Assembly: GCA_947426945.1 (NCBI GenBank)
Contig: CANEFX010000004.1
Location: 55,715 to 119,714, forward strand
Reading direction: 5' to 3'
Origin: an uncultured Bacillota bacterium
Lineage (GTDB): Bacteria; Bacillota; Clostridia; Oscillospirales; Oscillospiraceae
Length of the DNA: 64,000 nucleotides
The position numbers and the translations under genes are program-made. This document shows positions 15,029 through 45,102 of this stretch, piece by piece; position 1 is the first letter of the stretch; each line of letters starts with the position of its first letter. The notes under the pieces are model-generated. The model was not told the DNA's origin, searched no databases, and saw nothing but the letters and a program-made list of their open reading frames with translations.

Positions 15029-15262
15029 TTACGCCGGGCACTGCCGGCCGGTGTGGTCGATGGTGTATGCCCCGGTGAGAATGATCTGGGAGATGGGCAC
15101 GAAGGTATACCCCTCCTGAAGCAGCGTTTGAATAATGGTGGGCAGAGCCTCCGGGGTGTGGAGGGCGGCGTTGTGGAACAGAACGATGGAGCCGGGCTGG
15201 ACCTTGCCTGTCACCCGTTTGGTAATCTCGCCCGCGGACAGGTCTTTCCAGTCCAGACTGTC
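15029..15262 (-). pseudogene. pdaB: 3' part of a split pdaB-type sporulation deacetylase gene (codons 182-258)
   Basis: Encodes DSLDWKDLSAGEITKRVTGK and the motif GSIVLFHN, the C-terminal fifth of a PdaB-type polysaccharide deacetylase, with a native stop at 15029. It has no start, ribosome site or promoter of its own; the frame runs a few codons into unrelated element DNA. The missing 181 codons lie at 44560-45102 on the same strand. Joining at the shared GA gives the family motif WDVDSLDW without a gap. This half carries the presumed catalytic histidine of the last motif, so the separated halves should be inactive. Confidence 0.9.
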
Positions 15263-15282
15263 ACTGAACGTAACAGAGGAAA
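15247..15282. other. Attachment site (left junction) of the integrative element
   Basis: The attB-derived arm TCCAGTCCAGACTG (15247-15260) meets core TC (15261-15262; GA on the pdaB strand) and the element arm ACTGAACGTAACAGAGGAAA (15263-15282). See the right junction for symmetry. Confidence 0.85.
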
Positions 15283-15333
15283 GCGGCGGTGTTTCCTGCG
15301 GGCACACGAATCCGGGAGGAGAGCAGCCGGGCT

Positions 15334-15367
15334 GGCCGAAATGCCGGCAACGGCCGGTAATTCGGCC
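15334..15367 (-). terminator. Hairpin after the first gntR gene
   Basis: GGCCGAA-N-T-N-CCGG pairs with CCGG-N-A-N-TTCGGCC. It lies 16 bp past the stop of the leftward regulator. There is no long T run, so termination strength is uncertain. Confidence 0.5.
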
Positions 15368-15383
15368 TGTGCCTCACATCTGT

Positions 15384-16076
15384 TTACTGCTGCAGCAGAT
15401 CGATCGTATGCTGGATATGGGCCAGCATAATTGCTTTGGCTTTTTCCCCGTCCCGCGCCCGAAGCGCCCGGATAATTTCCCCATGGTCCAAAATACTGTC
15501 ATGTATGGTATGGCTGTAAAGCACATCCTGAAACGTCACGCTCATCAGCTCAAGGGTCGTATTGAACGCGATATTTGTAAGCTGCTCCAGAAACGCATTT
15601 TTAGACTTCTGCGTATAAAGCCGGTGCATCTCAAATTCTCCTCCGGTACTGCCTCTCTCCTGAAATTTCCTGCACATCTCCCGATAGGCGTTTTCCAGCT
15701 CCTCCAGGTCCTGATCGGAGGCGTTTATCGCAGCCAGCTCTACCGCTTTACACTCCAGGGACTGTCTAGTTTGATAAATTTCCACCAAAGAATAGCGCTC
15801 CAGGTTTTTGGACAACCGTTCATTGCGGGAGAAATCGACCTGATTAGGCATCGCCCGCAAAAACCGCCCCTTTCCCTGGCGTGCGTTTATCAGCCCGCGC
15901 TCTTCCAGTACGTGAAACGCCTCCCGCAGTACGCTTTTGCTGATATTCCACCGCTCTACCAGTTCCCGTTCCGAGGGAAATTGCTGCCCAACCTTAACCT
16001 CCTGCCGGTCTATGATGCCGTATAGTTCGTTCACGACCTCTTCATACAGCAATTTTTTCCTGATTGTTGTAGGCAT
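15384..16076 (-). CDS. GntR-family regulator, FadR/FCD type (regulator 1)
   Basis: A 230-residue repressor-type protein. The winged helix covers residues about 10-75 (FPSERELVERWNISKSVLRE, then RQGKGRFLRAMP), followed by the all-helical FCD ligand domain with a likely metal-binding His set (HRLY, HTIHDSILDHGEI, HIQH). It is closely related to regulator 2 at 26133 over its length (both share VLREAFHVLE and RQGKGRFLR). It has its own promoter at 16134-16162. It lies at the end of the peptidase/oligopeptide operon, so it probably senses a product of that pathway. Confidence 0.9.
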   Translation of the reverse strand: MPTTIRKKLLYEEVVNELYGIIDRQEVKVGQQFPSERELVERWNISKSVLREAFHVLEERGLINARQGKGRFLRAMPNQVDFSRNERLSKNLERYSLVEIYQTRQSLECKAVELAAINASDQDLEELENAYREMCRKFQERGSTGGEFEMHRLYTQKSKNAFLEQLTNIAFNTTLELMSVTFQDVLYSHTIHDSILDHGEIIRALRARDGEKAKAIMLAHIQHTIDLLQQ

Positions 16077-16133
16077 ACAATTCCTCCCTGCTCAGTTTGA
16101 TTACAAAAAGCCTGCCGAGCCCCTAACAAAACG

Positions 16134-16162
16134 ATTATATTATGTTTCGGCTAAATTTGCAA
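16134..16162 (-). promoter_or_regulatory. Promoter of regulator 1
   Basis: Leftward TTGCAA, 17-bp spacer, TATAAT, followed by GGGAGG before the ATG at 16076. Confidence 0.75.
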
Positions 16163-16175
16163 CCGTTTCCCCCGT

Positions 16176-17339
16176 TTACCACCATTTCCGCTGAGAATGA
16201 TTCAGATTTTCAAAGCCCGTACGGGTGACCAGAATCTCATCTTCGATCCGACAGCCCCCCACTCCGGTTTGATAGAGTCCAGGCTCCACCGTAATTACCA
16301 TTCCAGGAACCAGCGGCGTTTTATCGTATTTTGCCAGAACAGGCGGTTCATCTGTCCCCAATCCAATGGCATGCCCCAGATAGGTGGCAGGACCGTTATA
16401 AGCCCGGGTGTGGTTGCTGGTAAAACCCCTGGCGCAGGCAATCTCCCCGGTAATCTGCTCCAGGCTTTCCGCCGTAACGCCCGGACGCATCGCCGCGACA
16501 GACTTCTCAAACATTTCCAGCGCGGTGTCCAAAATCTCGATCTGACGCCTGGATGCTGTGCCGGCCACCGTAGAGCGGCAGATATCGATCATATAACCCT
16601 GGTATTTTCCGTTGATCTCCATATGCACCATGTCGCCGTCTTCAATCACTTTGTCTGACGCAGGTTCCAGATCGTACGCCGTTTCCGACCTCCATCCGGA
16701 TTGACAGGTCGCAAAGGCTCCGCTCACGCCCCGCCTGGTCAACTCCGATGTAATAAACTGATAGACCTGCCGTTCCGTGAGACCGGGACGGAGGTAATCC
16801 CTGAGCATATCGGATACCTCATCCCCGATTCCGGCTCCTCTTCTTAAAAGCTCCAGCTCATACGGGCTTTTTGACGCGCGAAGATTCATGACAATGTCGT
16901 CCGCGCGGTAAAATCTGGCCTGATAGAGCTCCGCTTTCAAATCCTCATACAGCTCCACAGACAGGATATCCATACCGACAATGCCGATATCGCGCTGCGC
17001 CAGGCCGTATCGCCTCACCGCGCGTCCGATTTCCTCCGGTACGTTGTCATGGTAAGTCACGTCCGACACATAGAGCTCCCGCTCGTAAAACGGCGTGCTG
17101 GTGACCAGGCAGGGGTCCTGGTCCACAGGCAGCACCATAGCGGAATATCCCCTGCCCCGAAATCCGAATCTTCTGGGGTGCCCCGGCATCATGGGCTGAT
17201 GCCCGGTCAGATACAGCAGGTCGCCCACCCTTCTCGGGGCCAGCGCAAAAATAATCAGGCAGGAGTAGCCCCTTCCCGCCGCCTCCAGCTGAGCGCGGCG
17301 GATTCTGTTTTCATATTCCTGCATCAAGCGTTGATCCAT
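16176..17339 (-). CDS. M24 family peptidase (Xaa-Pro dipeptidase / creatinase-like)
   Basis: A 387-residue pita-bread metallopeptidase: a creatinase-type N-terminal domain, then the M24 domain from about residue 160. Ligand motifs: GYMIDICRS (Asp), LGHAIGLGTDEPP (His), ITVEPGLY (Glu) and IEDEILVT (Glu). The usual first Asp appears as Glu in HMEINGKYQGY. It would remove N-terminal residues before proline, or act on a related amide. The start at 17339 lies 8 bp after the amidohydrolase stop, with its GGGGG ribosome site inside that gene. Last gene of the eight-gene operon starting at 25875. Confidence 0.85.
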   Translation of the reverse strand: MDQRLMQEYENRIRRAQLEAAGRGYSCLIIFALAPRRVGDLLYLTGHQPMMPGHPRRFGFRGRGYSAMVLPVDQDPCLVTSTPFYERELYVSDVTYHDNVPEEIGRAVRRYGLAQRDIGIVGMDILSVELYEDLKAELYQARFYRADDIVMNLRASKSPYELELLRRGAGIGDEVSDMLRDYLRPGLTERQVYQFITSELTRRGVSGAFATCQSGWRSETAYDLEPASDKVIEDGDMVHMEINGKYQGYMIDICRSTVAGTASRRQIEILDTALEMFEKSVAAMRPGVTAESLEQITGEIACARGFTSNHTRAYNGPATYLGHAIGLGTDEPPVLAKYDKTPLVPGMVITVEPGLYQTGVGGCRIEDEILVTRTGFENLNHSQRKWW

Positions 17340-17347
17340 ATTTCTTT

Positions 17348-18604
17348 TTACCCCCGTTCCGTCTCGTAAGCAGTTCCATCTTTCATTACAAAGCAGCAGT
17401 CCATCAGCGCGTCCGGGTCGGCAAGCAAATCCCGACCCCACGCTGCGACATCTGCCCTCATCCCGGGCTGAATGGCGCCAATATCATGCCTTCCCAGAAT
17501 CTCCGCATTGACCGAAGTGGCGGCCCGCAGCGCCTGGAACGGCGCAAACCCGCTGCGCAGCCAGGAGGCGTATTCCCGGCCGCACTCATAGCAGGGGTAT
17601 GTCTCGCACATGTCTGTCCCATATCCCAACCGCAGGCGGCTCTCCCGGATAACCTCCCGGCCGGCCCTCAGCTGGGGGCCGTAGGCGCGCAGCTTCTCCC
17701 GAAATTCCGCCGGCTCCCGCCGTTGAAGCGCCTCCTCGTCCATCAGAATGATTTCGTCGTACTGCATCATCGTAGGGACCAGATAGACGTCGTGCGCTTT
17801 CATTTCCTCGGCCGTTTTTTCATCCATAAGGGAGCCGTGTTCGATCCCGTCTATCCCCATGGACACCAGTTTTTGAATGGTCTCCGGCGTGTAGGCGTGG
17901 GCTGTTACCGGGATACGCATCTGGTGGGCCGCCGCAATCACAGAAGCGTACTCCTCATCGGTCAGCTGAACGTCTCCCGGGCCGCCGTACGGATTCATGA
18001 AACCGCCGTTGGCCATCAGTTTGATAAAGTCAGCCCCCATTTTGGCCTGCTCTCTCACCGACGCGATAAAGAAGTCCTTTCCCGTTCCAATCCCCGGGTA
18101 GTCCTCGGCCAGAGCTGAAGCCAGATCGGGATTACCGGACAGCGCTCTGGTAAAATCTGCCATTCCGCCCACGCAGCCGGTATAGAACGGTGCGACCGAC
18201 AGCGATGCGCCGGGGAAATAGCCCTGGTCGATAGCTCGTTTTGCATCAATAGAGGCATAGCCGTCGTTGCAGTGGCAGCCCACCACACGCAGTGTGGTAA
18301 ACCCCCTGCGCAGCGCCCGTTCGGCATTGTAGAGCACAGCCATCCCCTTCCAGGCCTTTGAGGTGTAGACGCTCTCCCAGCCGCGCCGCCTCCAGTCAAA
18401 GGTACTCAGATGGACATGGGCGTCAATCAGGCCGGGCGTAACTGTGTCGCCAGACAGATCTATCCGTTGGGCCTGCCTTGGACGCGGTATGTCTTTTCCC
18501 ACCTTTTGAATTCTGCCGTCCTCTATCAGGATGTCCATACCCGTGAAAAAGTCCTCGTGGATTCCGTCGAACAATTTTCCGCATGTTATAATGGTCTGGC
18601 CCAT
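17348..18604 (-). CDS. Amidohydrolase-superfamily metallo-hydrolase (prolidase / imidazolonepropionase-like)
   Basis: A 418-residue TIM-barrel hydrolase. All metal ligands are seen: HxH in DAHVHLSTF, the Lys in FIKLMANGG (usually carboxylated), His in VTAHAYTPE, His in GIEHGSLMD and Asp in GYGTDMCETY. Members of this group include Xaa-Pro and Xaa-Arg dipeptidases; cargo next to an oligopeptide transporter and two peptidases fits a dipeptidase. The start at 18604 follows GAGAGGAGACGG; an upstream ATG at 18754 would overlap the transporter gene out of context. Gap to the preceding ABC gene is 16 bp. Confidence 0.85.
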   Translation of the reverse strand: MGQTIITCGKLFDGIHEDFFTGMDILIEDGRIQKVGKDIPRPRQAQRIDLSGDTVTPGLIDAHVHLSTFDWRRRGWESVYTSKAWKGMAVLYNAERALRRGFTTLRVVGCHCNDGYASIDAKRAIDQGYFPGASLSVAPFYTGCVGGMADFTRALSGNPDLASALAEDYPGIGTGKDFFIASVREQAKMGADFIKLMANGGFMNPYGGPGDVQLTDEEYASVIAAAHQMRIPVTAHAYTPETIQKLVSMGIDGIEHGSLMDEKTAEEMKAHDVYLVPTMMQYDEIILMDEEALQRREPAEFREKLRAYGPQLRAGREVIRESRLRLGYGTDMCETYPCYECGREYASWLRSGFAPFQALRAATSVNAEILGRHDIGAIQPGMRADVAAWGRDLLADPDALMDCCFVMKDGTAYETERG

Positions 18605-18620
18605 GTCCCCGTCTCCTCTC

Positions 18621-19580
18621 TCAAAGCTCGCTCCAGCGGCAGCAGGCCGCCATATGCCCCGGAGCCACCTCCAGCAACTCCACCGGGCCCTGCGTGCATC
18701 TCTCGGTACAATGCCGGCACCGGAGTGCAAAGCGGCAGCCGGGCGCCGGATCAATCGGGCTGACGACCTCCCCTTTCAGAACCTCTCTCTTCTTGCCGCG
18801 GCAGCTCAGGTCAGGAACAGGGATGGCGGACAAAAGAGCTTTTGTGTAAGGGTGGTATGGATGGGAAAACAGCTCCTGACTGGGCGCTCTCTCCACGCAT
18901 TTCCCCAGATACATCACGGCGATCTCATCGCTGATCATTTTTACAACAGAGAGGTCGTGAGTGACAAACATGTAAGTCAGCCCAAGCTCCTCCTGCAGGT
19001 CCAGCATCAGATTCAATATCTGGGCCTGAATCGATACGTCCAGCGCGCTGACCGGCTCGTCGCATACGATAAACTCCGGCTCCAGCGCCAGTGCCTTGGC
19101 AATTCCGATTCTCTGCCTCCGGCCTCCGTCCAGCTCGTGGGGATACGCATTGCTCAGCCGGGCAGCCAGACCCACGGTCTCCATCAGCTGCCCCACCTTT
19201 TTTTCAATCTCCCGCCGGTCGGTCATGGTTTTGTTGATATATATCGGCTCAGAAATGATTTCTCTCACTGTCATGCGGGGATCCAGCGAGGCGTACGGAT
19301 CCTGAAAAATCATCTGCATGTGCTGTCTCATCCGTTTGGTGTCCCGCCTTCCGTAGCCTGCAATGTCAGTTCCCTTGTACAGAATTTCTCCGGAAGTGGG
19401 CTCCAGCAGTTTCAGGATGGTGCGTCCCAGCGTACTCTTGCCGCAGCCGGACTCCCCCACAACGCCAAGTGTCTTTCCCCGGCGAAACTGAAGATTCACG
19501 TCGTCCACTGCGTGCAAAAGCCCCCTCGGCGTCTGAAAATACTTTTTCAGCTGTCTTGTCTCCAGCAATATTTCATTCAT
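18621..19580 (-). CDS. oppF: Oligopeptide ABC transporter ATP-binding protein (OppF/DppF type)
   Basis: A 319-residue ATPase that drives peptide import together with OppD. The Walker A is GESGCGKST, the Walker B IVCDEP, and the C-terminal Cys-rich oligopeptide extension is present (CRHCTERC). The ABC signature is unusual: [10 protein letters not shown] instead of LSGGQRQRIG, with Ser and Gln both replaced. This does occur in some OppF-like proteins and the partner OppD has a normal FSGGMKQR. The start overlaps the oppD stop by 4 bp. Confidence 0.92.
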
Positions 19581-20581
19581 CTGCTTCCCATCTCCTCCTC
19601 ACCCTGTGCATACAAAAAGCACTTGATCATATGAGACTGGCTGATCTGCACTGGCTCAGGCTCCCGCTCCCGGCAAATCGGTTTGCAGCGGGGACATCTC
19701 GGGTGAAATTTGCAGCCTGCCGGAAGATCCGTCGGATCTGGCATCAGTCCCTCAATGGATTTCAGCCGCCTTTCCGTGCTGACCAGGCTGGGCAGCGCGT
19801 CAAAAAGCCCTTTGGTATAGGGGTGGTGCGCCTCTCCGCTGAATATATCCTCCACTGTGCCGAATTCAATGATTTCTCCCGCATATACCGTAGCCACTGT
19901 GTCGCATTTCTCCGCCACAATGCCCAAGTCGTGGGTAATGAGTATCATGGTCATGCCAAGCCGCTCCCGCAGCTGGCTCATCATATCCAGCACCTGCGCC
20001 TGAATGGTAACGTCCAGCGCCGTAGTCGGCTCGTCCGCAATCAGCAGCTTGGGGCTGCACGCCAAGGCCATCGCGATAACGACCCGTTGTTTCATTCCGC
20101 CGGAAAACTGGTGTGGGTATTCATGATACCGGGCGGCCGGGATTCCCACCAGCTCCAGCATTTCATGGACGCGGGCAATCAGCTCCTCCCGGGACTTCTT
20201 CTCCTCATTGTGCAGCTCCAGCCCCTCCAATATCTGCTCTCCGATTGTCAGCACAGGATTCAGGCTGGTCATGGGATCCTGAAAGATCATTGATATCTTC
20301 TCCCCGCGGATCGCCTGCATCTCTTTTTTCTTACATTGCAGCAGGTCTCGCCCCTCAAATATGATTTCTCCTGACTCGATCCTGCTGGTCCGTTCCGGCA
20401 GCAGACCCATGACAGACAGCGCCACCGTAGTTTTTCCGGCGCCCGTTTCGCCCACCAGGCCCAGGCACTCTCCCTCCTGCACCCCGAAGCTGAGGCCATT
20501 GACCGCCTGTACCCGCTCCCCGCTCCCCGCGTAGGCCACACGGAGATCCTTCACTTCCAGAATGGTATGAATTTTACTCAT
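19577..20581 (-). CDS. oppD: Oligopeptide ABC transporter ATP-binding protein (OppD/DppD type)
   Basis: A 334-residue ATPase, the second nucleotide-binding subunit of the peptide importer. Walker [10 protein letters not shown], signature FSGGMKQR, Walker B LLIADEP and the C-terminal [14 protein letters not shown]ys cluster mark the OppD group. The ribosome site GAGGAGAGG lies right before the ATG. It lies 9 bp after oppC and overlaps oppF in ATGA, so the subunits should be made together. Confidence 0.95.
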
Positions 20582-20590
20582 CTCCTCTCC

Positions 20591-21466
20591 TCAGTCCTTC
20601 AAGCGCGGGTCCAGCGCATCACGAAGGCCGTCCCCCAGCAAATTCAGCGCCAGCACGGTCAGCGCCAGAAAAATACCGGGAATGATAATCAGGTGGGGCG
20701 CCGACTGGATAAATTCACGGGCCTCCGAAAGCATGTTGCCCCACTCGGGCCTGGGCGCCTGAACGCCTAACCCGATATAGCTCAAGCCGGCCGCATTCAG
20801 AATGGAGCTTCCGATTCCCAGGGTGCACTGTACAATGATCGGCCCCAGCACATTGGGGATAATGTGCCGCGCCAACACATGGGCGGTACCGGCCCCTACC
20901 GCGTTGGCCGCCTCAATATAGTCCGCGTTGCGGATTGTCAGTACCGAGGACCGCACAACTCTGGCATAATTGGGAATGTCGGCCACTGCAATGGCAATCA
21001 TCAGGTTAAAGATACCCCCTCCCAGGGCCGCTACCACGGCCAGTGCCAGGATGGTGGAGGGGATCGCCATGATAATATCCATGCATCGCATCACGATGTT
21101 GTCATACCGGCCGCCGTAAAAGCCGGCCGTCGCGCCGATGGCGCCCCCGAAAACCAGGGATACCAGCACTGCGCCAAATCCAATGATAAGTGAGACGCGG
21201 GCCCCGTGGGCTATCCTGGCCAGCACATCCCGGCCGTAGTGGTCGGTGCCGAAAAGTCCCTTCTTCATAGGCGCCATCAGTCGGTTGGCAATATCCATTT
21301 TGGTGGCTACCTCGTTGTAATCCCCAATCAAATCGGCAAAAATTGCCATCAGAATGATGATGATTAAAATAACCAGACCTGCCATCGCCGTCCGATTTTT
21401 CTTCATCCGGCGCCATACGGCAGAAAATTTTCCCTGCTTCAGCCCCTGCTGACGGTCTCTTTTCAC
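20591..21466 (-). CDS. oppC: Oligopeptide ABC transporter permease (OppC/DppC type)
   Basis: A 291-residue inner-membrane permease with an N-terminal helix (VILIIIILMAIFADLI), then five further helices and the EAA loop EAANAVGAGTAHVLARHIIP that docks the ATPase. The GTDHYGRDVLARI motif is typical of OppC/DppC. It starts with GTG at 21466, supported by GGGAGG at about 10 bp. The gap to oppB is 16 bp. Confidence 0.93.
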   Translation of the reverse strand: MKRDRQQGLKQGKFSAVWRRMKKNRTAMAGLVILIIIILMAIFADLIGDYNEVATKMDIANRLMAPMKKGLFGTDHYGRDVLARIAHGARVSLIIGFGAVLVSLVFGGAIGATAGFYGGRYDNIVMRCMDIIMAIPSTILALAVVAALGGGIFNLMIAIAVADIPNYARVVRSSVLTIRNADYIEAANAVGAGTAHVLARHIIPNVLGPIIVQCTLGIGSSILNAAGLSYIGLGVQAPRPEWGNMLSEAREFIQSAPHLIIIPGIFLALTVLALNLLGDGLRDALDPRLKD

Positions 21467-21482
21467 AGCTGTGCCACCTCCC

Positions 21483-22412
21483 TCATTTTGCGAACTGCGC
21501 CCGTATCCTTGGATCGATCACCGCATACAGCAGGTCGATTACCAGATTGATTACGGTAAAGATGATGGCCAGTACTATCACCGATCCCATAATCAAGGGC
21601 GTGTCGCTGCTTCGAATCGCCGTTACCAGCAGGCTGCCCAGACCGGGCATGGCAAACACGGACTCAACCAGAACCGCCCCGCCGATCAGCTTGCTGAACT
21701 GTATCGCAACAATGGTTAAAACCGGGATCATCCCGTTTTTCAAACAGTGCTTCATGACGACCCGCCCTTCACCGGCCCCTTTTGCCCGGGCGGTGCGTAC
21801 ATAATCCTGGCGGATCACTTCCAGCATGGTGGAGCGGGTCATTCTGGTGACCACCGCCAGATTGACCGCCGCCAGCGTCAGGCAGGGCAGGATGTAATTG
21901 ATCCAGGAGTCCGCCCCCGTAGGCGGAAGCAGCTGCAGCTGCACCGAAAAGAGGAGCATCAGCATCAGGCCGATCCAGAAGGAGGGCATGGAAGCCAAAA
22001 CCAGTGCCAGGACTACACTGACCATGTCGATCACAGAATACTGCCTGATCGCGGAGATGATCCCGATGGGTATGCCGATTATGCACACCAAAAGAATGGA
22101 GAATGCCGCCAGTCTCAGCGTAACCGGGAATCGGGCGGCAATTTCGGCTGAAACACTGTTTCCGTTGCGGTAGGAGCTGCCCAGATCCCCCCGTATCAGT
22201 CCCTTCATATAGTTAAAATACTGCACAAAAAACGGTTCATTCAGCCCCATTTCCTCACTGAGCTGATCGATTGCCTCCTGTGTCGCTTCCGACCCCAATA
22301 TGAGTTGCGCCGGGTTTCCCGGCTTTAAATACATAATTGAGAAAATGATAAAGCTGACGCCGAGCACGATGGGGATCAGCCACAAGATTCGTTTCGCGAT
22401 ATACTTTCCCAT
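21483..22412 (-). CDS. oppB: Oligopeptide ABC transporter permease (OppB/DppB type)
   Basis: A 309-residue membrane permease of six helices, with the N-terminal KRILWLIPIVLGVSFIIF helix and the GGAVLVESVFAMPGLG motif shared by OppB/DppB. The EAA-like loop is YVRTARAKGAGEGRVVMKHC. It pairs with OppC to form the channel. The ribosome site is GGGAGG. It is separated from the binding-protein gene by 144 bp holding a strong hairpin. Confidence 0.93.
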   Translation of the reverse strand: MGKYIAKRILWLIPIVLGVSFIIFSIMYLKPGNPAQLILGSEATQEAIDQLSEEMGLNEPFFVQYFNYMKGLIRGDLGSSYRNGNSVSAEIAARFPVTLRLAAFSILLVCIIGIPIGIISAIRQYSVIDMVSVVLALVLASMPSFWIGLMLMLLFSVQLQLLPPTGADSWINYILPCLTLAAVNLAVVTRMTRSTMLEVIRQDYVRTARAKGAGEGRVVMKHCLKNGMIPVLTIVAIQFSKLIGGAVLVESVFAMPGLGSLLVTAIRSSDTPLIMGSVIVLAIIFTVINLVIDLLYAVIDPRIRAQFAK

Positions 22413-22501
22413 ATATCCTCCCTTTTGGGCTTAGCGCTTGTATCCATAGCCGGGAGACGCCAGACAGCGTTTCCGGATTGTGACTACAGGCTCTTAGTAT
22501 T

Positions 22502-22539
22502 GCAATACGCCGGAGAGCAATTTCTCTCCAGCGTATTGC
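22502..22539 (-). terminator. Intercistronic hairpin between the binding-protein and permease genes
   Basis: GCAATACGC-C-GGAGAG pairs with CTCTCC-A-GCGTATTGC over a 6-nt loop; no T run follows on the leftward strand. Such hairpins commonly protect or partially terminate binding-protein mRNA. Confidence 0.65.
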
Positions 22540-22556
22540 GCTACAGAATCACTCTG

Positions 22557-24113: not shown

Positions 24114-24132
24114 TTTTACGACCTCCTTTTGT

Positions 24133-25875: not shown

Positions 25876-25927
25876 TTGGATTCCCTCCGTTTAATTCTTT
25901 TCTCCCAGCTAAATATATTCTAAGTCA

Positions 25928-25981: not shown

Positions 25982-26074
25982 TCATACTTTTTAATATAAT
26001 TCCCTCATAGATTTTGTCTATTATGACAGTTTTTACGCAAATCAATTTTGCCGCTCTCCCAGGCAGGCTGACAC

Positions 26075-35921: not shown

Positions 35922-35934
35922 GTTCGCTCCCTCC

Positions 35935-36813: not shown

Positions 36814-36825
36814 TTTTACTTCCTC

Positions 36826-38349: not shown

Positions 38350-38366
38350 AGTTTTCCTCCCCGCCA

Positions 38367-38939
38367 TCAGGGCAGCGGAATTTTTGCCAAGCCCTCAAAG
38401 GCGTATGCAACTAACAGTGTGGTCAACAGCGCGGCCGTCAGGTCAATGGCGATGTGCTTCCAGCTGTGCTTTGGGTCGTAGAGCAGCATAGAAACCGCCA
38501 AAAATACGAATGTTAAAACGCGGTAGTAAATAATCCCCAGCAAAAACACATAGGCGCACAGCAGAATACTGATAACCAGCAGGTCGACAACCCGTCGGGC
38601 CGTCCAGACGCCGCCTTTCTGCTTTGCCCGGCCCTTGGACCGGCTGAGACGCCGGCCGGTAATCAGCCCCTGCACCAGGGAGAGCAGGCACATCAATATC
38701 CCCAGAAACGCCGGGAACACGCCCGGCGCCACATACCAGATCCCCCCGGACAGCGTCTGGGAGGGCATATTGACAGAGGTGATAAACACATAAACCCCAA
38801 ACGCGAACAGCAGCCCAGCGGCCACCAGTTCTCCCGCCTGGCTGACGTCCTGTTCACCCGCGTTTTTGACCTTTTCCTCCCAGTTGTCCCCGACGGATTC
38901 CTTTTGGACTGCGCCTGAGTCTTTCGTTACATCGTTCAT
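38367..38939 (-). CDS. tctB: Tripartite tricarboxylate transporter, small permease TctB
   Basis: A 190-residue membrane protein with four predicted helices (about 38-58, 74-94, 125-143, 165-183) and the loop WYVAPGVFPAFLGILM seen in TctB proteins. The first 35 residues are charged and probably cytoplasmic. The 84-bp gap from tctC holds a strong hairpin. AAAGGA precedes ATG 38939. Confidence 0.88.
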   Translation of the reverse strand: MNDVTKDSGAVQKESVGDNWEEKVKNAGEQDVSQAGELVAAGLLFAFGVYVFITSVNMPSQTLSGGIWYVAPGVFPAFLGILMCLLSLVQGLITGRRLSRSKGRAKQKGGVWTARRVVDLLVISILLCAYVFLLGIIYYRVLTFVFLAVSMLLYDPKHSWKHIAIDLTAALLTTLLVAYAFEGLAKIPLP

Positions 38940-38979
38940 TCCGTAATCCTTTCTCTTCGCGGCAGCGCCGCCGTCCGCC

Positions 38980-39017
38980 TTCGTTCTCCGGCCGGGATGT
39001 CCCGGCCGGAGAACGAA
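38980..39017 (-). terminator. Intercistronic hairpin between tctC and tctB
   Basis: An 18-bp perfect stem (TTCGTTCTCCGGCCGGGA and complement) with a 2-nt loop and no T run leftward. It is placed like the hairpin after the oligopeptide binding-protein gene, so it likely raises binding-protein mRNA over permease mRNA. Confidence 0.7.
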
Positions 39018-39023
39018 AATTTG

Positions 39024-40118
39024 TTACCGCTCCATCCCAAACTCGGCAGGATCGTGGGCGGCCAGCCCCAAATCCCACAGCCCGTAAGAGAAAGCCGCGT
39101 CCAACCCCTTGCACAGCTCCGAAGCCTCCTCGCCCAGATAGCCGTAGGCGCTGATATTCTGGGCCGCGATAAACTCCTGAACGGGAGCGGACTTCATAAC
39201 CTCAGGCCATGCGCCGCGGTAGGCCTGGACCACCTCATCCGGGCAGTCGGCGGGCAGGATAATACCCCACCACTGCATCAGCTGCTGGTAATCGGCATAC
39301 TCGGGGTAGTAGTCACAGATGGAGGGGATCGTCCCAACCACAGGGTCCTCCACCGGGGAGGTGCTCATCGCCACCAGCGGTACAAAGTCGCCGGACGCAA
39401 TGTAATCAATCTGCTCGGAGTAATTGGTGATGATAAACTCTGTCTCATTGGACAGCAGGCCCACGTTGGTCGGATTGGAGCCCTCATAAGACAGGAAATT
39501 GAAGGTAATGCCGTCTTCCTTTACCAGATTCTCCAGCTGGGCATAGGAGAGGCCAAGCACAGAGGTGGGCGTAGAGGCTCCCGCGTTCAATTCCTTCGTG
39601 GCGGCGTATTCCAAAAAGGCCTTGAAATCCTGAATTCCGGAGCTCTTATTCACCGACAGGACAGGGGTGGAGCCGGCACACATATAGATATCCCACACCT
39701 CGGAGGTCTCGGCAAAGCAGTCCGTTACGGCCAGGGGGTGCATGCCCTCATGTATCCCGCACAGGGTGTAGCCGTCATGCTTCGCGTCCCAGACCTGCTG
39801 CATAGCGATGCCTCCCCCGCCGCCGGGTGCGTTCACCACCTGGAAGGTAACGCCAAAGTACTGCTCATAGGCCTGTGCGATGGCGCGCACCATCAGATCA
39901 GTACCTCCGCCGGCGCCGGCGCCCACATATATGGTGACTGTCGATCCGGGCTTCCAGCTCAAAGGCGCGGAAATATCGGCGCTTCCGCCGCTCGTTCCGC
40001 CGATGCCGGAGGAATTGCCCTGCGTGCCTGGAGATGTGCCGCCGCCGCTCTTGCAGCCTGCAATTCCCAACGCAATTACCAGAGCCAGGGCCGACGCTAA
40101 CAACCTTTTTTTCAACAT
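39024..40118 (-). CDS. tctC: Tripartite tricarboxylate transporter, substrate-binding lipoprotein TctC
   Basis: A 364-residue lipoprotein: basic start, hydrophobic core and lipobox GIAGC with Cys22, then a Ser/Gly linker. The fold opens with VTIYVGAGAGGGTDLMVRAI, the glycine-rich loop of Bug/TctC proteins, and VVNAPGGGGGIAMQQ. AGGAGG lies 10 bp before ATG 40118. First of the tctCBA set. Confidence 0.92.
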   Translation of the reverse strand: MLKKRLLASALALVIALGIAGCKSGGGTSPGTQGNSSGIGGTSGGSADISAPLSWKPGSTVTIYVGAGAGGGTDLMVRAIAQAYEQYFGVTFQVVNAPGGGGGIAMQQVWDAKHDGYTLCGIHEGMHPLAVTDCFAETSEVWDIYMCAGSTPVLSVNKSSGIQDFKAFLEYAATKELNAGASTPTSVLGLSYAQLENLVKEDGITFNFLSYEGSNPTNVGLLSNETEFIITNYSEQIDYIASGDFVPLVAMSTSPVEDPVVGTIPSICDYYPEYADYQQLMQWWGIILPADCPDEVVQAYRGAWPEVMKSAPVQEFIAAQNISAYGYLGEEASELCKGLDAAFSYGLWDLGLAAHDPAEFGMER

Positions 40119-40168
40119 TTTACTTAATCCTCCTATCTGTGAAAACAAATTGTCCGGTTCCATTTCGG

Positions 40169-40174
40169 ATCATA
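40169..40174 (-). promoter_or_regulatory. Possible extended -10 promoter for tctC
   Basis: TGTTATGAT on the leftward strand, about 50 bp before the tctC start, with TTGAGA 19 bp upstream. The 265 bp between the UxaA-like gene and tctC otherwise hold no gene I can support. Confidence 0.35.
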
Positions 40175-40383
40175 ACAAATATCTTTTTCCAAATCTCAAA
40201 GCGGTATGCGAAGAGGGCATTTTAAGCGCTCCGGTTCCTCCTGCCCTTCTTCCCAAATGTCTGCCCGCAAATAATGTATCTCCCCCCTTTTGCCGAACGG
40301 TGATCACGATTTCTGTCTGTTCCTCGTTGTTTTCGCATTCATCCATCCTATTTTTTCATCCTCTGGGCAGTTCTATTTCCTTC

Positions 40384-41874
40384 TTACAGCGTCACCCCAT
40401 CTCTCAGCAGTGCGATCTGATAAAAGCCGGCTCGCTCGTTGCTCGCCGCATACCGGCCCTCGGCAGTGGCAATCACCATATCATATAATTCCCGCTCCAG
40501 CTCCTCCAGCCTTTCTCCCTCCAGCAGCCGTCCCGCATTAAAGTCCATCCAGGCGCGCTTTTTTTCAAACAGGGCGGAGTTCGTAGCCACCTTTAAGGTT
40601 GGCGCGGCATAGGCCACCGGAGTGCCGCGGCCGGTGATGAACAGCACCAGATTCGCTCCGGCTGCGATCTGGCCGGTCACACCCACCAAATCGCTTCCCG
40701 GCCCCCAAATCAGCTGAAACCCGGGTTCCGCTGCTCGGCCGCCATAGGGCAGCACATCCATTACGGCGCACCGCCCTCCTTTCTGGATACAGCCCAGCGC
40801 CTTGTCCTCAATCGTACTGATGCCGCCTTTTCGATTGCCATAGGAGGGGTTTCCGCTGGCGCTGGCCCCATATCTCTCGATGTAGCGTTTAAATCCCTGA
40901 ATCAGGTCCACAATCTTTGCAAAAACCGCCTCGTCTTTTGCCCGGTTCATCAAAATATGTTCTGCGCCAAACATCTCCGGAACTTCGGTGATATTCACCC
41001 TGGTCCCATGCTCCTTGACAAAATGCTCCGTCAGCCGTCCTACCAGGCGGTTGCCGGTAATGCCGGAGAATCCGTCGCTCCCGCCGCAGTTTTCCGCGAT
41101 GTGCAGCTTGCTCAGAGAACAGGGGGTGCGCCGGTCCCTGTTGACCAGGCGGTACAGTTTTTCCAATTGATCCATGGCGGCGGCGTATTCATCCTGCGTA
41201 TCCTGCATCCGGATTAGGGCAAACCGCTCCTCGTCCATCCGCTCCATAAAGGGCCGAATGGTTTCAAAGTATATGTTTTCACACCCCAGCTCTACGAAGA
41301 GAATGCCGCCAAAGTTGGGGTTCTGCATCAGAGAGGCCAGCACTCGCCGGACATTTTCCACATCCCGGCCCATCTGACCGCAGCCGCATTCGTGCGTCAG
41401 GGGAAGAAAGCCGTCGAAGTGTTCCGTGTTGGGGAATCTCTCTCCGGCCAACTTTCCAAAATCCCGAATGTGTGTGTTTGTGCAGAAGGAACCGGACAGA
41501 ATCGCGATGTAATTCCGGGTCCCTACTTCGCCGCTCCTGCGCTGATATCCCAGAAACGTCTGGCTGCTCCTGCCGGGAGCGATTGCGCCTGGATCCGGCG
41601 TATAGCAGTACTCCCGGCGTGAGTCGCCCTGAGACAGGATATTGTGGTCATGAAGCCACCCTCCCTGGGGAGCTTCCTCTCCCATTACTCCAATCACGTT
41701 TCCATACTTGATGACCTCCTGACCTTTTTTCAGAGGAGTCAATGCAACCTTGTGTCCCTTGGGGATTGCCTCCTTTGCGACAAACGAAATACTGCCGCAG
41801 CTCACAGACTCTCCTTCCGCGACCTCATCCAGGGCTACCGCTACATTGTCCATTTCATGAATCCGGTACAGCAT
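40384..41874 (-). CDS. UxaA/GarD-type altronate/galactarate dehydratase family protein
   Basis: A 496-residue full-length member with both parts: an N-terminal SAF domain (residues 1-90, ending VIKYGNVIGV) and the catalytic UxaA domain starting at FLGYQRRSGEVGTRNYIAI. Cys/His metal-ligand segments LTHECGCGQMGRD, ELGCENI and AENCGGSDGFSGITGN are present. Family members dehydrate altronate, galactarate or related hydroxy acids to 2-keto-3-deoxy products, which would feed the oxidoreductase downstream. AGAGG precedes ATG 41874. An AT-rich operator repeat lies in its leader. Confidence 0.88.
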   Translation of the reverse strand: MLYRIHEMDNVAVALDEVAEGESVSCGSISFVAKEAIPKGHKVALTPLKKGQEVIKYGNVIGVMGEEAPQGGWLHDHNILSQGDSRREYCYTPDPGAIAPGRSSQTFLGYQRRSGEVGTRNYIAILSGSFCTNTHIRDFGKLAGERFPNTEHFDGFLPLTHECGCGQMGRDVENVRRVLASLMQNPNFGGILFVELGCENIYFETIRPFMERMDEERFALIRMQDTQDEYAAAMDQLEKLYRLVNRDRRTPCSLSKLHIAENCGGSDGFSGITGNRLVGRLTEHFVKEHGTRVNITEVPEMFGAEHILMNRAKDEAVFAKIVDLIQGFKRYIERYGASASGNPSYGNRKGGISTIEDKALGCIQKGGRCAVMDVLPYGGRAAEPGFQLIWGPGSDLVGVTGQIAAGANLVLFITGRGTPVAYAAPTLKVATNSALFEKKRAWMDFNAGRLLEGERLEELERELYDMVIATAEGRYAASNERAGFYQIALLRDGVTL

Positions 41875-41899
41875 GTTACCTCTCCCATTCTATATAATC

Positions 41900-41930
41900 T
41901 ATATCTTATAAATTATATCTTATAATTTTT
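41900..41930 (-). promoter_or_regulatory. Candidate operator of regulator 3 before the UxaA-like gene
   Basis: Tandem ATATCTTATAAATT and ATATCTTATAATTT. An 18-bp stretch (41900-41917) is identical to the complement of the palindrome region at 42710, so one regulator could bind both. Confidence 0.6.
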
Positions 41931-41946
41931 TGGGTAAGAAGAACTG

Positions 41947-42627
41947 TTACCAGTCCGTCCTGTCCATCATTGCCAACACTTCTGCCTTTACACGATCAAG
42001 GTGGGTCGTCATAGCGGCCTTTGCCCCTTGAAAGTCGTCTCCTTCAATGGCGGCCAATATAGCCTTATGTTCCCGTACCGGAAGCATAAGGTCCTCCTCA
42101 ATCCCCATATCCTTTTTGTACTGCGGGATCGGCGCTCTCACCATGGCAATTCTATCAATCAACCCATTAATTTCCTGTCGGAGATACCGGTTATTGGCCC
42201 TCTGAATCAAAATATTGTGAAACTCCCAATTGCAGCGGATAATTGCCTCTTCGTCAAAGACCTCATAAGCCCGCTGATATTTCTCCTGAGCCAGCCTCAG
42301 CCCCCGCTTATCCTCTTCACTTAAAAGCGGAAGGGCCTTTTCCAGCGCCCATATCTCCAGGCACTCCCGGATGTCAAACAAATCCTCCGCATCCCGCCTG
42401 TTAAAGCTGACAATGGACGAGGATTGATAGGAATCCCCTACAATCAATCCCGCCTGACGCAGCATATTGATCGCTTCACGCACAGGAGTCACGCTGCAGT
42501 TAAAGCGCTTCGCAATCGCCGCTTCATTAATTTTTTCCCCCATCTGGAAGCCAGGGGTTTTCTGCAGGATAATGATTTCCTTTAAAAGGTGATAGATCTG
42601 TTTGGAAAGCGATTCTCTATTCAGCAT
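41947..42627 (-). CDS. GntR-family regulator, FCD type (regulator 3)
   Basis: A 226-residue regulator with winged helix (INEAAIAKRFNCSVTPVREA, then LIVGDSYQSSSIVSF) and FCD domain with the metal-binding set (DIRECLE, NWEFHNIL, REHKAIL, HLDRV). It is not closely related to regulators 1 and 2; the SVTPVREA recognition helix is of the VanR/UxuR group, in keeping with control of sugar-acid genes. A leader promoter TTTACA-N17-TATTAT lies before the start; the ribosome site is weak (GGTGAAG). Confidence 0.9.
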   Translation of the reverse strand: MLNRESLSKQIYHLLKEIIILQKTPGFQMGEKINEAAIAKRFNCSVTPVREAINMLRQAGLIVGDSYQSSSIVSFNRRDAEDLFDIRECLEIWALEKALPLLSEEDKRGLRLAQEKYQRAYEVFDEEAIIRCNWEFHNILIQRANNRYLRQEINGLIDRIAMVRAPIPQYKKDMGIEEDLMLPVREHKAILAAIEGDDFQGAKAAMTTHLDRVKAEVLAMMDRTDW

Positions 42628-42709
42628 ACTACTTCACCCGTGTCAATTCTTATTTATTATAATAGCAAAAATATTCCCCGGTGTAAATTGACATTTTGTT
42701 CAAAAATGT

Positions 42710-42728
42710 ATCTTATAATTTATAAGAT
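42710..42728. promoter_or_regulatory. 19-bp palindrome, candidate operator of regulator 3
   Basis: ATCTTATAA-T-TTATAAGAT is a perfect palindrome about 80 bp upstream of the regulator gene, upstream of its -35. It shares its core with the repeat before the UxaA-like gene. Confidence 0.6.
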
Positions 42729-42818
42729 ATAACATTCTCTTTTTGCCCTCCAGGGCGAACAGCAGCCGGAAACCGCTCTGTCCAAACGCCTTTATCCGCC
42801 GAGCGTTTCTCCTTCTGT

Positions 42819-44279
42819 TCAGATATTCCATATGATTTCTGCACTGTCCTCCGCAATTTCAATCCGCCGAATAAACTGTGCGGCAACTGTTTTTTTCTCC
42901 TCAAAATTGAGCGTGGAAAAGTCGATTGCCGTCGGAAGGGCGGGACGCCGGTGTTCGCGGCGCTGCGCCTCCAGAACTGTCTGGCGCTCCTGCTCCAGGC
43001 GGGCCAGCGACCGCTGGAGATAGGCCGGGGGGAGGTCGGCGCTCTCAGAAAAGGCGTCGATCAGCCGGTCCGCCTTGCGGTCGATCTCCTCCAACTGCCT
43101 GGCGAAGGAGCCATTTTCCCGCAACTCCGGTACTTCCTCCGGGCACTCTGCCAGCATCCGCACAATCTCGGCTGATACGATCTCCTCCAGCTCACCGAGT
43201 TTGACATGGATGCTTGCGTCGCAGTGAGACAGGTTATAGCGCCCGCTGCAGGCCAGCCAGCGGTGGGTCTTGTCCGTGATTACCTTGAGACTGTAGCCGC
43301 ACTTCGCACATTTCAGCAGTCCGGAAAGCCAGGTATGGGTCCCTTTCCCGCTGTTGCCTACCTGATGGTTGTGGTCCAGCTTGGCCTGACAGCGCAGCCA
43401 GAGGCTGGCCGGGATAAACCCCAGGCTGTTCATGACAGAGGCGACGTGGTCTTTCAGATCGGTATATTTTCGGTTAGAGGCCTTTCGTTTGCCCACCAGA
43501 AGTACGCTATGCGCCCCGTCGAACTGCTCCGGAGGCGAGGTAATGTGCGCGCCCCGGCCCATCAGGTAGAGCCGGACCTGCTCGTCGGCCATCACATAGG
43601 CCGGGTTGTGCAGGATGCGGGAGAGGGTGACGTTGTCCCAGGTGCCGCGCTTCGCGCCGGGAATCTCCTCCACAGTCAACCGGCGGGCCAGCAGACCTAA
43701 GGACATTCCCTCCGTGGCATACTCCTCATAAATACGGCGGACGGTCTCCGCGTTTTTGTTGGCGGTCAGCGCTGGGACTGCGCGTCCGTCGGTACTGCGG
43801 ATTCGCCCGATGTCAAACCCGTAGGGGGCCGGGCCGCCGGGCCAGGAGCCCAGCGAGGCCCGGCGATAGTAGTTATCCCGTACCCGTTCGGCGGTGGTCT
43901 CCCGCTCCAATTGGGCGAATACCATGATGATGTGGAGCATAGCCCGCCCCATGGGAGTGGTGGTGTCAAAGTTTTCGTTGACTGAGACAAACTCCACGTT
44001 GTGCTCCTGGAGAATTTCCCACAGCCGTCCGAAATCGGCGACGGAACGGGAAAAACGGTCCAGGCGGTACACATAGAGCTTTCTAATTTTATCCGCCTTG
44101 ATATCCCGGAGCAGGCGCTCAAAGTCGGGCCGCTTTGTGTTTTTCCCGGAGTAGCCGGCGTCCTGATAGACTGTCAATTTCCCACCGGCCGCCTTTCGGC
44201 ACAGATCCAGCTGACCGGAGATGGACAGGCTGTCCTTCCGCAGGAGGGATTGCCGGGCGTAGGCTGCGTCGTATTTCAT
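42819..44279 (-). CDS. Large serine recombinase (integrase/excisionase of the element)
   Basis: A 486-residue serine recombinase. The N-terminal catalytic domain has YARQS with nucleophile Ser11 and arginines in YRLDRFSRS (72, 75). The recombinase domain follows (about 155-265, APYGFDIGRI to RILHNPAYVM), then a zinc ribbon with Cys324, Cys327, Cys344 and Cys353, and a coiled-coil-like C-terminal segment. Such enzymes join attP and attB through a 2-bp core, matching the GA deduced at the junctions. Placed at the right end, 8 bp after a 43-codon gene. Confidence 0.95.
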   Translation of the reverse strand: MKYDAAYARQSLLRKDSLSISGQLDLCRKAAGGKLTVYQDAGYSGKNTKRPDFERLLRDIKADKIRKLYVYRLDRFSRSVADFGRLWEILQEHNVEFVSVNENFDTTTPMGRAMLHIIMVFAQLERETTAERVRDNYYRRASLGSWPGGPAPYGFDIGRIRSTDGRAVPALTANKNAETVRRIYEEYATEGMSLGLLARRLTVEEIPGAKRGTWDNVTLSRILHNPAYVMADEQVRLYLMGRGAHITSPPEQFDGAHSVLLVGKRKASNRKYTDLKDHVASVMNSLGFIPASLWLRCQAKLDHNHQVGNSGKGTHTWLSGLLKCAKCGYSLKVITDKTHRWLACSGRYNLSHCDASIHVKLGELEEIVSAEIVRMLAECPEEVPELRENGSFARQLEEIDRKADRLIDAFSESADLPPAYLQRSLARLEQERQTVLEAQRREHRRPALPTAIDFSTLNFEEKKTVAAQFIRRIEIAEDSAEIIWNI

Positions 44280-44287
44280 CTCCGGTA

Positions 44288-44419
44288 TTATGCGTCCTGC
44301 TTATCAGAGGCTTCTTTGGCTGAACGGAGTGCGGCGGTACAGGTTTTCTTGACGTCCAGAATCGCCTGTCGGCGCTGTTCCGGAGTATCATAAGCAGGGT
44401 GGGTATGTTTAATCTTCAT
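44288..44419 (-). CDS. 43-residue protein preceding the recombinase; candidate directionality factor
   Basis: MKIKHTHPAYDTPEQRRQAI is followed by a Lys/Ala-rich helix ending KEASDKQDA. A strong ribosome site (AAGGAGG) lies 7 bp before ATG 44419. It is 8 bp ahead of the recombinase gene, so both are on one transcript. I do not recognise a family. A small basic protein in this position could be the recombination directionality factor or a regulator of the recombinase; this is only positional inference. Confidence 0.6.
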   Translation of the reverse strand: MKIKHTHPAYDTPEQRRQAILDVKKTCTAALRSAKEASDKQDA

Positions 44420-44537
44420 GGCGACCCCTCCTTGGCCTATCTTATGAGCGGCCACAGGCGGAAATGTCTGAGCTTTGGGAAACAAAACAATTTCAGGAAT
44501 TATTTTCGTGCTCTAAAATTCCCTGTGCCCCAAGGGG

Positions 44538-44573
44538 TTTCCTATGTTGCACTCGTTTCCACATCCCACTGGA
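44538..44573. other. Attachment site (right junction) of the integrative element
   Basis: Element arm TTTCCTATGTTGCACTCGTT (44538-44557), core TC (44558-44559), chromosomal arm CACATCCCACTGGA (44560-44573). The element arm mirrors the left one at 14 of 20 positions; the chromosomal arm mirrors the left one at 8 of 14, including all six outer bases. Confidence 0.85.
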
Positions 44574-45102
44574 TCGGCTCCATTCCAATGGAGCGCACAG
44601 CATTGATGGATTTATCGTCGTAATCGCCGTAGGGCAGCCGGACCAAAGTAGGCCGCACCCCGGTGACCGCCTCGATCTTGTCGTTGCAGGCGTTCAGATC
44701 GGCGGTCACCTCATCTGCAGACAACTGAGGATAGTGGGCATGCGTATTGGAATGGTTCATCACCTCATGGCCCGCGTCGTGGAGGGCCTTTACCGATTCG
44801 GGATATTTGTCCACCCACTCTCCCACCACAAAGAAGGTGGCCGGGACCTTGTACTGTTCCAGGATGTCGATCAACTGCTGGGTATCCTCATTACCCCAGG
44901 CGGCATCAAAGCTGATGGCTACCAGCTTCTGGTCCCGCTGAACACAGTAAATCGGCAGCTGTCGGGTAGAGGCCGAGGCTCCTATGGCCGCGGGGTAGTT
45001 GACCACATAAAACATTACCGCTGCCAGACACAGACAGGCACACACCGACCACCACCGTCTCCCGATAAACCATATTCTTACTTTTTCCCGTCTTTTTCCC
45101 AT
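44542..45102 (-). pseudogene. pdaB: 5' part of the split pdaB-type sporulation deacetylase gene (codons 1-181)
   Basis: Encodes a PdaB-type protein: basic start, one membrane helix (about 17-35), then the deacetylase domain with the PdaB-style first motif SFDAAWG (residues 64-70) in place of FDDG, metal histidines in NHSNTH (117, 121) and RLPYGD. At WDV (residue 181) it runs into element DNA, adding ETSAT and a stop. Motifs four and five are missing. The rest is at 15029-15262. PdaB is needed for spore stability in Bacillus. GGGAG precedes ATG 45102. The truncated product is probably inactive unless the element is excised. Confidence 0.92.

What the first reader, a model, noticed from the sequence alone, without database searches (positions are those of the whole stretch)
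15029..45102. A sporulation deacetylase gene is split by a 29.3-kb serine-recombinase element whose removal restores the frame
Seen directly: codons for the first 181 residues of a PdaB-type protein at one end, the last 77 at the other, same strand, with a recombinase gene between. Joining at the shared GA gives WDVDSLDW, a normal family motif, and a 258-residue protein, near the usual length. Known: several sporulation genes in Bacillus and Clostridium (sigK, spoVFB, spsM, gerE) carry such elements, which are excised in the mother cell. Inference: this may be a new intervening element in pdaB, with catabolic cargo, that could control spore coat/cortex formation.
Basis: partly seen in the sequence, partly recalled or inferred. 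Interest (0 to 1): 0.95.

Follow-up and report, generated by a model that had tools for sequence, protein, structure and literature searches.

The report
Excisable insert splitting a spore gene
A 29.3-kb DNA element that carries its own recombinase cuts a spore-formation gene (pdaB-type) in two, dozens of other Clostridia carry related inserts at the same codon, and the insert is likely removed while the cell makes a spore, which would restore the gene.

Summary
Confirmed and extended. On the minus strand, codons 1-181 (45102-44560) and 182-258 (15262-15029) of a pdaB-type gene flank a 29,297-bp element with a large serine recombinase. Joining at the shared GA gives an intact 258-aa protein; close congeners carry it uninterrupted (95% identical). 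The split is recurrent: of 64 congeneric genomes 39 have full-length pdaB, 13 have it split with both sides seen, 4 show one side, 1 has a small deletion, 7 give no match beyond paralogues. The ten nearest recombinases (the window's included) all lie in genomes split at codon 182. In named genomes, 36 of 42 recombinases at least 40% identical have a pdaB fragment in the fetched locus, against 3 of 32 below 37%. All 35 distinct N-side ends recovered carry the GA core. Split halves are as constrained as intact ones. Most of these recombinases follow a conserved micro-ORF (candidate directionality factor); some, and pdaB itself, have a sigma-E-like promoter. Some genomes have a second insert at codons 69-70. 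The window's genome also has sigK split. Best reading: a skin/gin-like intervening element, likely excised in the mother cell. Excision itself is untested.

The parts
44560..45102 (-). pdaB-type gene, 5' part (codons 1-181; CE4 motifs 1-3)
   Evidence: motif names recalled
15029..15262 (-). pdaB-type gene, 3' part (codons 182-258 and stop; the gene's own start is in the other part)
44536..44579 (-). attL-type junction: host ..GATCCAGTGGGATGTG, core GA (44559-44558), element arm AACGAGTGCAACATAGGAAACC
15241..15284 (-). attR-type junction: element arm GCTTTCCTCTGTTACGTTCAGT, core GA (15262-15261), host CAGTCTGGACTGG; the two element arms match at 15 of 22 positions as an inverted repeat (attP)
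15263..44559 (.). intervening element, 29,297 bp, counting one copy of the core
42819..44279 (-). large serine recombinase, 486 aa, of the pdaB-associated clade
44288..44419 (-). 43-aa micro-ORF directly upstream of the recombinase, conserved in most of the clade; candidate recombination directionality factor
45163..45189 (-). sigma-E-like promoter of pdaB, ATGTT-N14-CATATAGT; would also read through into the micro-ORF and recombinase
15384..42627 (.). cargo: three GntR/FCD regulators, Opp-type ABC transporter with binding protein, amidohydrolase, M24, M28 and M20 peptidases, ATC hydrolase, CoA hydrolase/transferase, 2-oxoacid:ferredoxin oxidoreductase, Gfo/Idh oxidoreductase, TctABC, altronate/galactarate dehydratase

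Best explanation
This is a 29.3-kb serine-recombinase element inserted at a GA core in codon 182 of a pdaB-type sporulation gene, and it is likely excised in the mother cell under sigma-E control so that the gene is rejoined in frame during sporulation. Shown: anatomy, core, uninterrupted gene in relatives, recurrent insertion at the same codon by one recombinase clade, conserved micro-ORF, constraint on both halves. Inferred: sigma-E transcribes pdaB's 5' part and, by read-through here (by an own promoter in some relatives), the micro-ORF and recombinase; the microprotein would switch the recombinase from integration to excision of attL x attR; the mother cell's pdaB is then whole, while the forespore keeps the element.
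For: GA follows codon 181 at 35 of 35 distinct split N-ends and precedes 40 of 40 distinct C-starts that my motif pattern recovered (it missed 4 of 21 named loci with an N fragment and 2 of 30 with a C fragment, and 3 distinct C-starts were set aside because their arm imitates the host half-site). The 10 best recombinase matches among 64 congeners (window included, at least 49% identity) are all in site-A-split genomes; the next best reach at most 40%. Named loci: pdaB fragment in 36 of 42 at 40% identity or more, 4 of 6 at 37-40%, 3 of 32 below. On the tree the pdaB label needs 3 changes against a shuffled mean of 36.1. pN/pS over all pairs: split 0.186 (C) and 0.138 (N), intact 0.186 and 0.132; no stops in 11 split genomes. 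Anaerotignum: 5 of 7 species split, N-parts open in all five; two of them show pdaB-N dN/dS 0.02 at dS 2.8. Sigma-E-like motif with at most one mismatch: 20 of 30 pdaB upstream regions, 18 of 56 pdaB-type recombinases, 1 of 44 others; pdaB is in the B. subtilis sigma-E regulon (PMC4703394, PMC3416734, passages). Micro-ORF at 40 of 58 pdaB-type recombinases (16 of 34 not used to build the model), 2 of 52 others. Spo0A in 62 of 64 congeners; SigE over its model's cut-off, and a split sigK, in this genome.
Against: No excised chromosome or circle was seen: three attP patterns gave 0 hits in IMG/VR, and no reads were available. Most congeners with pdaB (39 of 57) are uninterrupted, including this genome's nearest relatives by PdaB, so the element is gained or lost and nothing shows long residence here. 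G047 and G048 share a nearly identical recombinase (dS 0.17) although their pdaB differ (dS 1.24), which means transfer. One IMG/VR contig (L210) has a 40%-identical recombinase beside a pdaB 3' part. At least two split copies look broken: a frameshift in the N-part of G081 and in the G063 fragment. The window's own recombinase has only a weak (2-mismatch) promoter match, so read-through is assumed; 38 of 56 pdaB-type recombinases lack a motif at one mismatch or less. Recombinase orientation varies. The micro-ORF is missing at 18 of 58, including Anaerotignum.
Confidence: 0.75

Rival explanations
1. An ordinary integrative mobile element that uses pdaB as its attB site; excision serves transfer only, and pdaB is simply lost in carriers.
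For: Patchy presence, recent transfer between G047 and G048, relaxase domains among the cargo, one carrier-type locus in the viral collection (L210), two broken copies.
Against: The 77-codon C-part, cut off from the gene's start, stays open in 11 of 11 split congeners, with pN/pS equal to that of intact genes. The split is kept in 5 of 7 Anaerotignum species at near-saturated dS. The 25 commonest Pfam and PHROG families of the ORFs I submitted show no complete transfer or phage module, and some elements are only 2.5-5.5 kb. Sigma-E-like promoters sit in front of some recombinases.
Confidence: 0.2
2. Sporulation is being lost in these lineages, so an insertion in pdaB is tolerated and the gene is on its way out.
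For: 7 of 64 congeners (some of them incomplete) have no PdaB match and 1 has a 5-bp deletion; G063 and G081 carry frameshifted pieces.
Against: Spo0A in 62 of 64, with the two misses both in intact-pdaB genomes; SigE in this genome; no stops and intact-like pN/pS in the 11 split congeners.
Confidence: 0.04
3. Assembly artefact.
For: Several of the split genes lie on different contigs of draft assemblies.
Against: In 22 genomes both ends of a site-A element lie on one contig (coordinates), with element arms at the ends; one of them is a record titled as a strain, not as a MAG (Anaerotignum lactatifermentans An390).
Confidence: 0.01

Closest known systems
skin element of Clostridioides difficile (sigK; CD1231 recombinase, CD1234 directionality factor)
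   Same: Serine recombinase element splitting a mother-cell gene; small directionality factor; sigma-E control of excision (PMC5025042, abstract and passages).
   Different: Target is pdaB, not sigK. Here the candidate factor lies directly upstream of the recombinase; in C. difficile CD1234 is under sigma-E and SpoIIID while CD1231 is constitutive. Excision is shown there, inferred here.
gin element in gerE of Bacillus cereus ATCC10987
   Same: Non-phage intervening element, 28.6 kb, with serine recombinase and directionality factor GirX (PMC5595907, passages).
   Different: Another gene; three recombinases there, one recognised in this window's element; Bacilli versus Clostridia.
SPbeta in spsM, vfbin in spoVFB, yin in yabG
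   Same: Sporulation genes split by intervening elements (listed in PMC10747680, passages).
   Different: Described there as prophage-like, in other genes; 'pdaB' does not occur in that paper.
XisF / fdxN element of heterocystous cyanobacteria
   Same: Best NCBIfam model for this recombinase (1.1e-33); developmental excision of an element from a gene (recalled).
   Different: Score 116.9 bits, far below that model's cut-off of 375; different phylum and target (recalled).

Membership tests
sporulation gene-intervening elements (skin/gin/SPbeta/vfbin/yin class) | splits a sporulation gene so that precise removal restores the frame | tested here: met
sporulation gene-intervening elements (skin/gin/SPbeta/vfbin/yin class) | encodes an intact large serine recombinase | tested here: met
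   (serine motif ARQS and catalytic region invariant in 10 sequences; residue roles recalled)
sporulation gene-intervening elements (skin/gin/SPbeta/vfbin/yin class) | attL/attR with a common core and palindromic element arms | tested here: met
sporulation gene-intervening elements (skin/gin/SPbeta/vfbin/yin class) | host keeps sporulation regulators | tested here: met
   Spo0A, SigE over cut-off; sigK is present but itself split
sporulation gene-intervening elements (skin/gin/SPbeta/vfbin/yin class) | directionality factor | tested here: inconclusive
   conserved micro-ORF, coding by pN/pS 0.41 against 1.14 and 1.88 in other frames (10 ORFs); function untested
sporulation gene-intervening elements (skin/gin/SPbeta/vfbin/yin class) | recombination genes under a sporulation sigma factor | tested here: inconclusive
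   motif enrichment; window's own recombinase only by assumed read-through
sporulation gene-intervening elements (skin/gin/SPbeta/vfbin/yin class) | excision in the mother cell during sporulation | not testable with these tools
   needs DNA from sporulating cultures
PdaB (NCBIfam TIGR02764) | score over the curated equivalog cut-off (237.4 bits) | tested here: not met
   joined protein 206.3, intact relative G009 205.6; it is the best-scoring NCBIfam model. Hence 'pdaB-type', not a formal equivalog.

The most novel reading that the evidence does not exclude
A dedicated, old recombinase lineage with its own microprotein switch has made pdaB a programmed split gene across many families of Clostridia. 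In some species pdaB lies in three pieces that need two excisions by two unrelated recombinases, and sigK is split as well, so spore formation in these bacteria would be gated by up to several ordered DNA excisions in the mother cell.
Probability: 0.55. Interest if true: 0.9.

Novelty: new member of a known kind. Interest (0 to 1): 0.8.

Why it matters
It would add pdaB to the spore genes rebuilt by programmed DNA excision (the papers opened here name sigK, spoVFB, spsM, gerE and yabG) and show the phenomenon as recurrent across many families of Clostridia. It provides a recombinase clade with a fixed natural target, many att pairs, and a candidate family of directionality factors. It also warns that split spore genes in draft genomes may be wrongly read as loss of sporulation.

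Tried and rejected
Assembly artefact: rejected (22 elements complete on one contig). Phage origin: the best IMG/VR relatives of the recombinase reach only 45% identity (best 80 kept), and three attP patterns found nothing there; one contig of that collection (L210) does carry a recombinase of 40% identity beside a pdaB 3' part and was not followed. Sigma-K-like promoter in front of the recombinases: next to no excess over shuffles. Homology of the micro-ORF to a solved directionality factor: only one hit up to E 1, a designed protein at E 0.29; single-sequence AlphaFold2 gives one helix, residues 13-42, mean pLDDT 79, no help for function. Recombinase always downstream of the pdaB 5' part: rejected, 3 of 24 loci with an N fragment have it adjacent and in the same direction. 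Simple vertical inheritance: rejected as a full account (G047/G048), though recombinase and PdaB distances correlate (Mantel r 0.50 and 0.59). In-frame stops flagged in other split N-parts were checked for G108, G111, G122 and G130: the parts are open up to the break.
Full report
Observation. The pdaB-type gene lies on the minus strand: codons 1-181 at 45102-44560, codons 182-258 at 15262-15029. The two parts share GA (44559-44558 and 15262-15261), and joining there gives a 258-aa protein with the motif WDVDSLDW. The element is 29,297 bp. In the integrated state the N-part runs into five element codons and a stop. By CE4 motif names recalled from memory, motifs 1-3 are in the N-part and motifs 4-5 in the C-part, so the split would remove activity. 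The joined protein's best NCBIfam model is TIGR02764 (PdaB), 206.3 bits against a cut-off of 237.4; an intact relative scores 205.6. I therefore write 'pdaB-type'.

Empty site and recurrence. One search covered 64 congeneric genomes (this one included). 39 carry a full-length gene; the two nearest, G009 and G051, are 95% identical over residues 2-258. 13 are split with both sides of at least one break seen: G000, G003, G008, G013, G019, G020, G040, G047, G048, G052, G056, G068, G074. 4 show one side only (G024, where the contig ends at the site; G069; G072; G076). G075 has a 5-bp deletion instead. 7 have no match beyond paralogues (G002, G004, G016, G053, G061, G073, G077); several of these assemblies are incomplete. 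Eleven of the 13 are split at the window's site (site A, codon 182).

Core and att sites. Across fetched loci, GA follows codon 181 at 35 of 35 distinct N-side ends and precedes 40 of 40 distinct C-side starts that a motif pattern recovered. The pattern missed the N fragments of L150, L166, L173 and L189 (4 of 21 named loci with one) and the C fragments of L149 and L162 (2 of 30); 3 further distinct C-starts were set aside because the element arm imitates the host half-site. The frame is restored by joining at GA in every recovered pair. The window's attP arms match at 15 of 22 positions as an inverted repeat; attB half-sites match at 10 of 20.

Recombinase clade. The window recombinase has Resolvase, Recombinase and zinc-ribbon domains. 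In the 64 congeners the ten best matches (itself and nine others, 49-81% identity) are all in site-A-split genomes; the next best reach at most 40%. A pdaB fragment lies in the locus (up to 10 kb each side) in 36 of 42 with identity of 40% or more, 4 of 6 at 37-40%, and 3 of 32 below 37%. Of the six exceptions at 40% or more, the whole-genome search found both parts broken at site A in L127, L128, L151 and L153 and only a C-part in L136; L163, a truncated contig, gave none. On a 108-row tree (L151 and L163 dropped by my length filter; L097-L106, L127, L128, L136 and L153 labelled by hand) the pdaB label needs 3 changes, against 36.1 for shuffled labels, none of 500 shuffles as low (quick method, SH-aLRT only). 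Hosts include records labelled Oscillospiraceae, Lachnospiraceae, Clostridiaceae, Butyricicoccaceae and Anaerotignaceae.

Second site. In G019, G020, G040, G056 and G069, and in the named genomes G090, G102 and G103 (Flavonifractor sp. An92), pdaB is broken at codons 69-70 (site B, motif 1), with shared TGGGG and arms like CCGCAAAATAACATTACC / TGATGTTATTTTGCGG (diverged in G102 and G103); in the four congeners where I looked (G019, G020, G040, G056) a recombinase only 24-26% identical to the window's lies in the fetched stretch. G020, G056, G090, G102 and G103 have both breaks; in G090 all three pieces lie on one contig. G094 also has three pieces, but besides them a near-full-length match. 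The window has site B intact.

Selection and age. Both halves are free of stops in all 11 site-A congeners compared. Pooled pN/pS against the nearest intact relative is 0.078 (C-part) and 0.060 (N-part); among intact genes 0.092 and 0.071. Over all pairs, split genes give 0.186 (C) and 0.138 (N), intact genes 0.186 and 0.132. Because an insertion may be recent, the stronger case is Anaerotignum: 5 of 7 species have split pdaB, one is intact, one lacks it; the five N-parts are open, and two of the species show dN 0.062 and dS 2.84 in the N-part and dN 0.075, dS 1.26 in the recombinase. Against long residence everywhere: G047 and G048 share a recombinase at dS 0.17 while their pdaB differ at dS 1.24, so elements also move. 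Two split copies look broken, G063 and G081 (frameshift). Recombinase and PdaB distances correlate moderately (r 0.50, n 30, and 0.59, n 22; 0 of 2000 permutations).

Control. A sigma-E-like motif (consensus recalled) with at most one mismatch is found upstream of pdaB in 20 of 30 loci of the genus (shuffled mean 0.3), of pdaB-type recombinases in 18 of 56 (shuffled mean 1.4, maximum 5) and of other recombinases in 1 of 44. I chose the motif after seeing the sequences, so the contrast with other recombinases is the fair control. The window's pdaB has a perfect match (45189-45163). Its recombinase has only a two-mismatch match, but starts 281 bp after the pdaB 5' part in the same direction, so read-through is my inference. 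Two papers list pdaB (ybaN, spoVIE) in the B. subtilis sigma-E regulon (PMC3416734 and PMC4703394, table passages).

Candidate directionality factor. Directly upstream of the recombinase is a 43-aa ORF (44419-44288). Relatives, mostly 33-51 aa, sit at the same place in 40 of 58 pdaB-type loci (16 of the 34 not used to build the model) and at 2 of 52 others, which are a truncated locus with an 86%-identical recombinase (L163) and a row inside the clade (L171). In 15 aligned sequences M1, I3 and R16 are invariant. Pooled pN/pS is 0.41 in frame, 1.14 and 1.88 in the other frames. A protein search found 82 relatives, none with a Pfam domain; the few with a descriptive name are 'hypothetical protein'. 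Loci without it include all Anaerotignum ones. In C. difficile the small factor CD1234 is under sigma-E and SpoIIID and is needed for excision (PMC5025042, passages).

Cargo. The window's element carries transporters, peptidases and carboxylate catabolism. G008's 5.5-kb element holds a TAXI-type binding protein, a DctM permease and the recombinase as its main genes. From nine other elements I submitted 103 of 125 ORFs of 110 aa or more (the recombinases and short overlapping ORFs were left out; the 36 ORFs of G120 were not submitted). The commonest Pfam families are glycosyltransferases, serine resolvases and RCC1 repeats, with 2 relaxases (25 of 104 families shown); PHROGs list integrases, invertases, one tail protein and two endolysin families (25 of 50 shown). 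Twenty-two elements complete on one contig range from about 2.5 to 39 kb.

Host. Spo0A is found in 62 of 64 congeners, the misses being two intact-pdaB genomes. The window's genome has SigE over the cut-off of its model and a sigK gene that is itself broken: residues 2-71 and 65-213 of the model lie 10.5 kb apart, and the 3' end is again replaced after SYVSR. SigK of a congener passes NF004471 but not the TIGR02846 cut-off.

Population hint. G072 has one contig with the N-part running into an element and another with the uninterrupted gene from residue 127 on; they overlap by 167 bp at 98.8%. This shows two alleles in one assembly, from strain variation or excision.

Literature. Ten searches of the open-licence library listed no paper whose title or abstract start points to a split pdaB; several listings were cut (for example 25 of 34, 12 of 29). 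I opened six papers for passages only: PMC10747680, PMC5595907, PMC5025042 and PMC3416734 do not contain the word pdaB; PMC4703394 and PMC8745062 do, without mention of a split in the passages shown. Subscription papers and preprints were not searched.

Noticed in passing
G000:C15 (L324, L308): sigK of the window's genome is split by a 10.5-kb insert after HIV, and its 3' end is replaced after SYVSR; several serine recombinases lie nearby. Other congeners also give partial sigK matches (starting near model position 60-65, or ending at 114-125).
   Followed up: partly
L290/L291 (G090), L301-L303 (G103, Flavonifractor sp. An92), L075/L076 (G056): pdaB in three pieces, with inserts at codon 69-70 and at codon 182; in G056 the site-B recombinase is unrelated at 24% identity.
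   Followed up: partly
L088:14178-14423 (G019); also G080, G087, G100: A second copy of the pdaB 3' part; in G019 the first copy is contiguous with the middle of the gene and the second lies 14 kb downstream, as if an element had brought its own 3' end.
   Followed up: no
L096 about 5077 (G075): 5-bp deletion exactly at the site-B core of pdaB, causing a frameshift; scar, mutation or sequencing error.
   Followed up: no
L198:8973-11386 (Candidatus Neoanaerotignum galli): A 2.5-kb element whose main genes are the recombinase and what looks (by eye) like an N-acetylmuramoyl-L-alanine amidase.
   Followed up: no
L065:11152-11559, L072:3761-4327: A second, short serine resolvase-type ORF within site-A elements.
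   Followed up: partly
L091 and L092 (G072): Element-bearing and uninterrupted pdaB contigs in one assembly, overlapping 167 bp at 98.8%.
   Followed up: partly
L210 (IMG/VR contig, 11 kb): A contig classed as viral carries a 40%-identical recombinase beside a pdaB 3' part.
   Followed up: no
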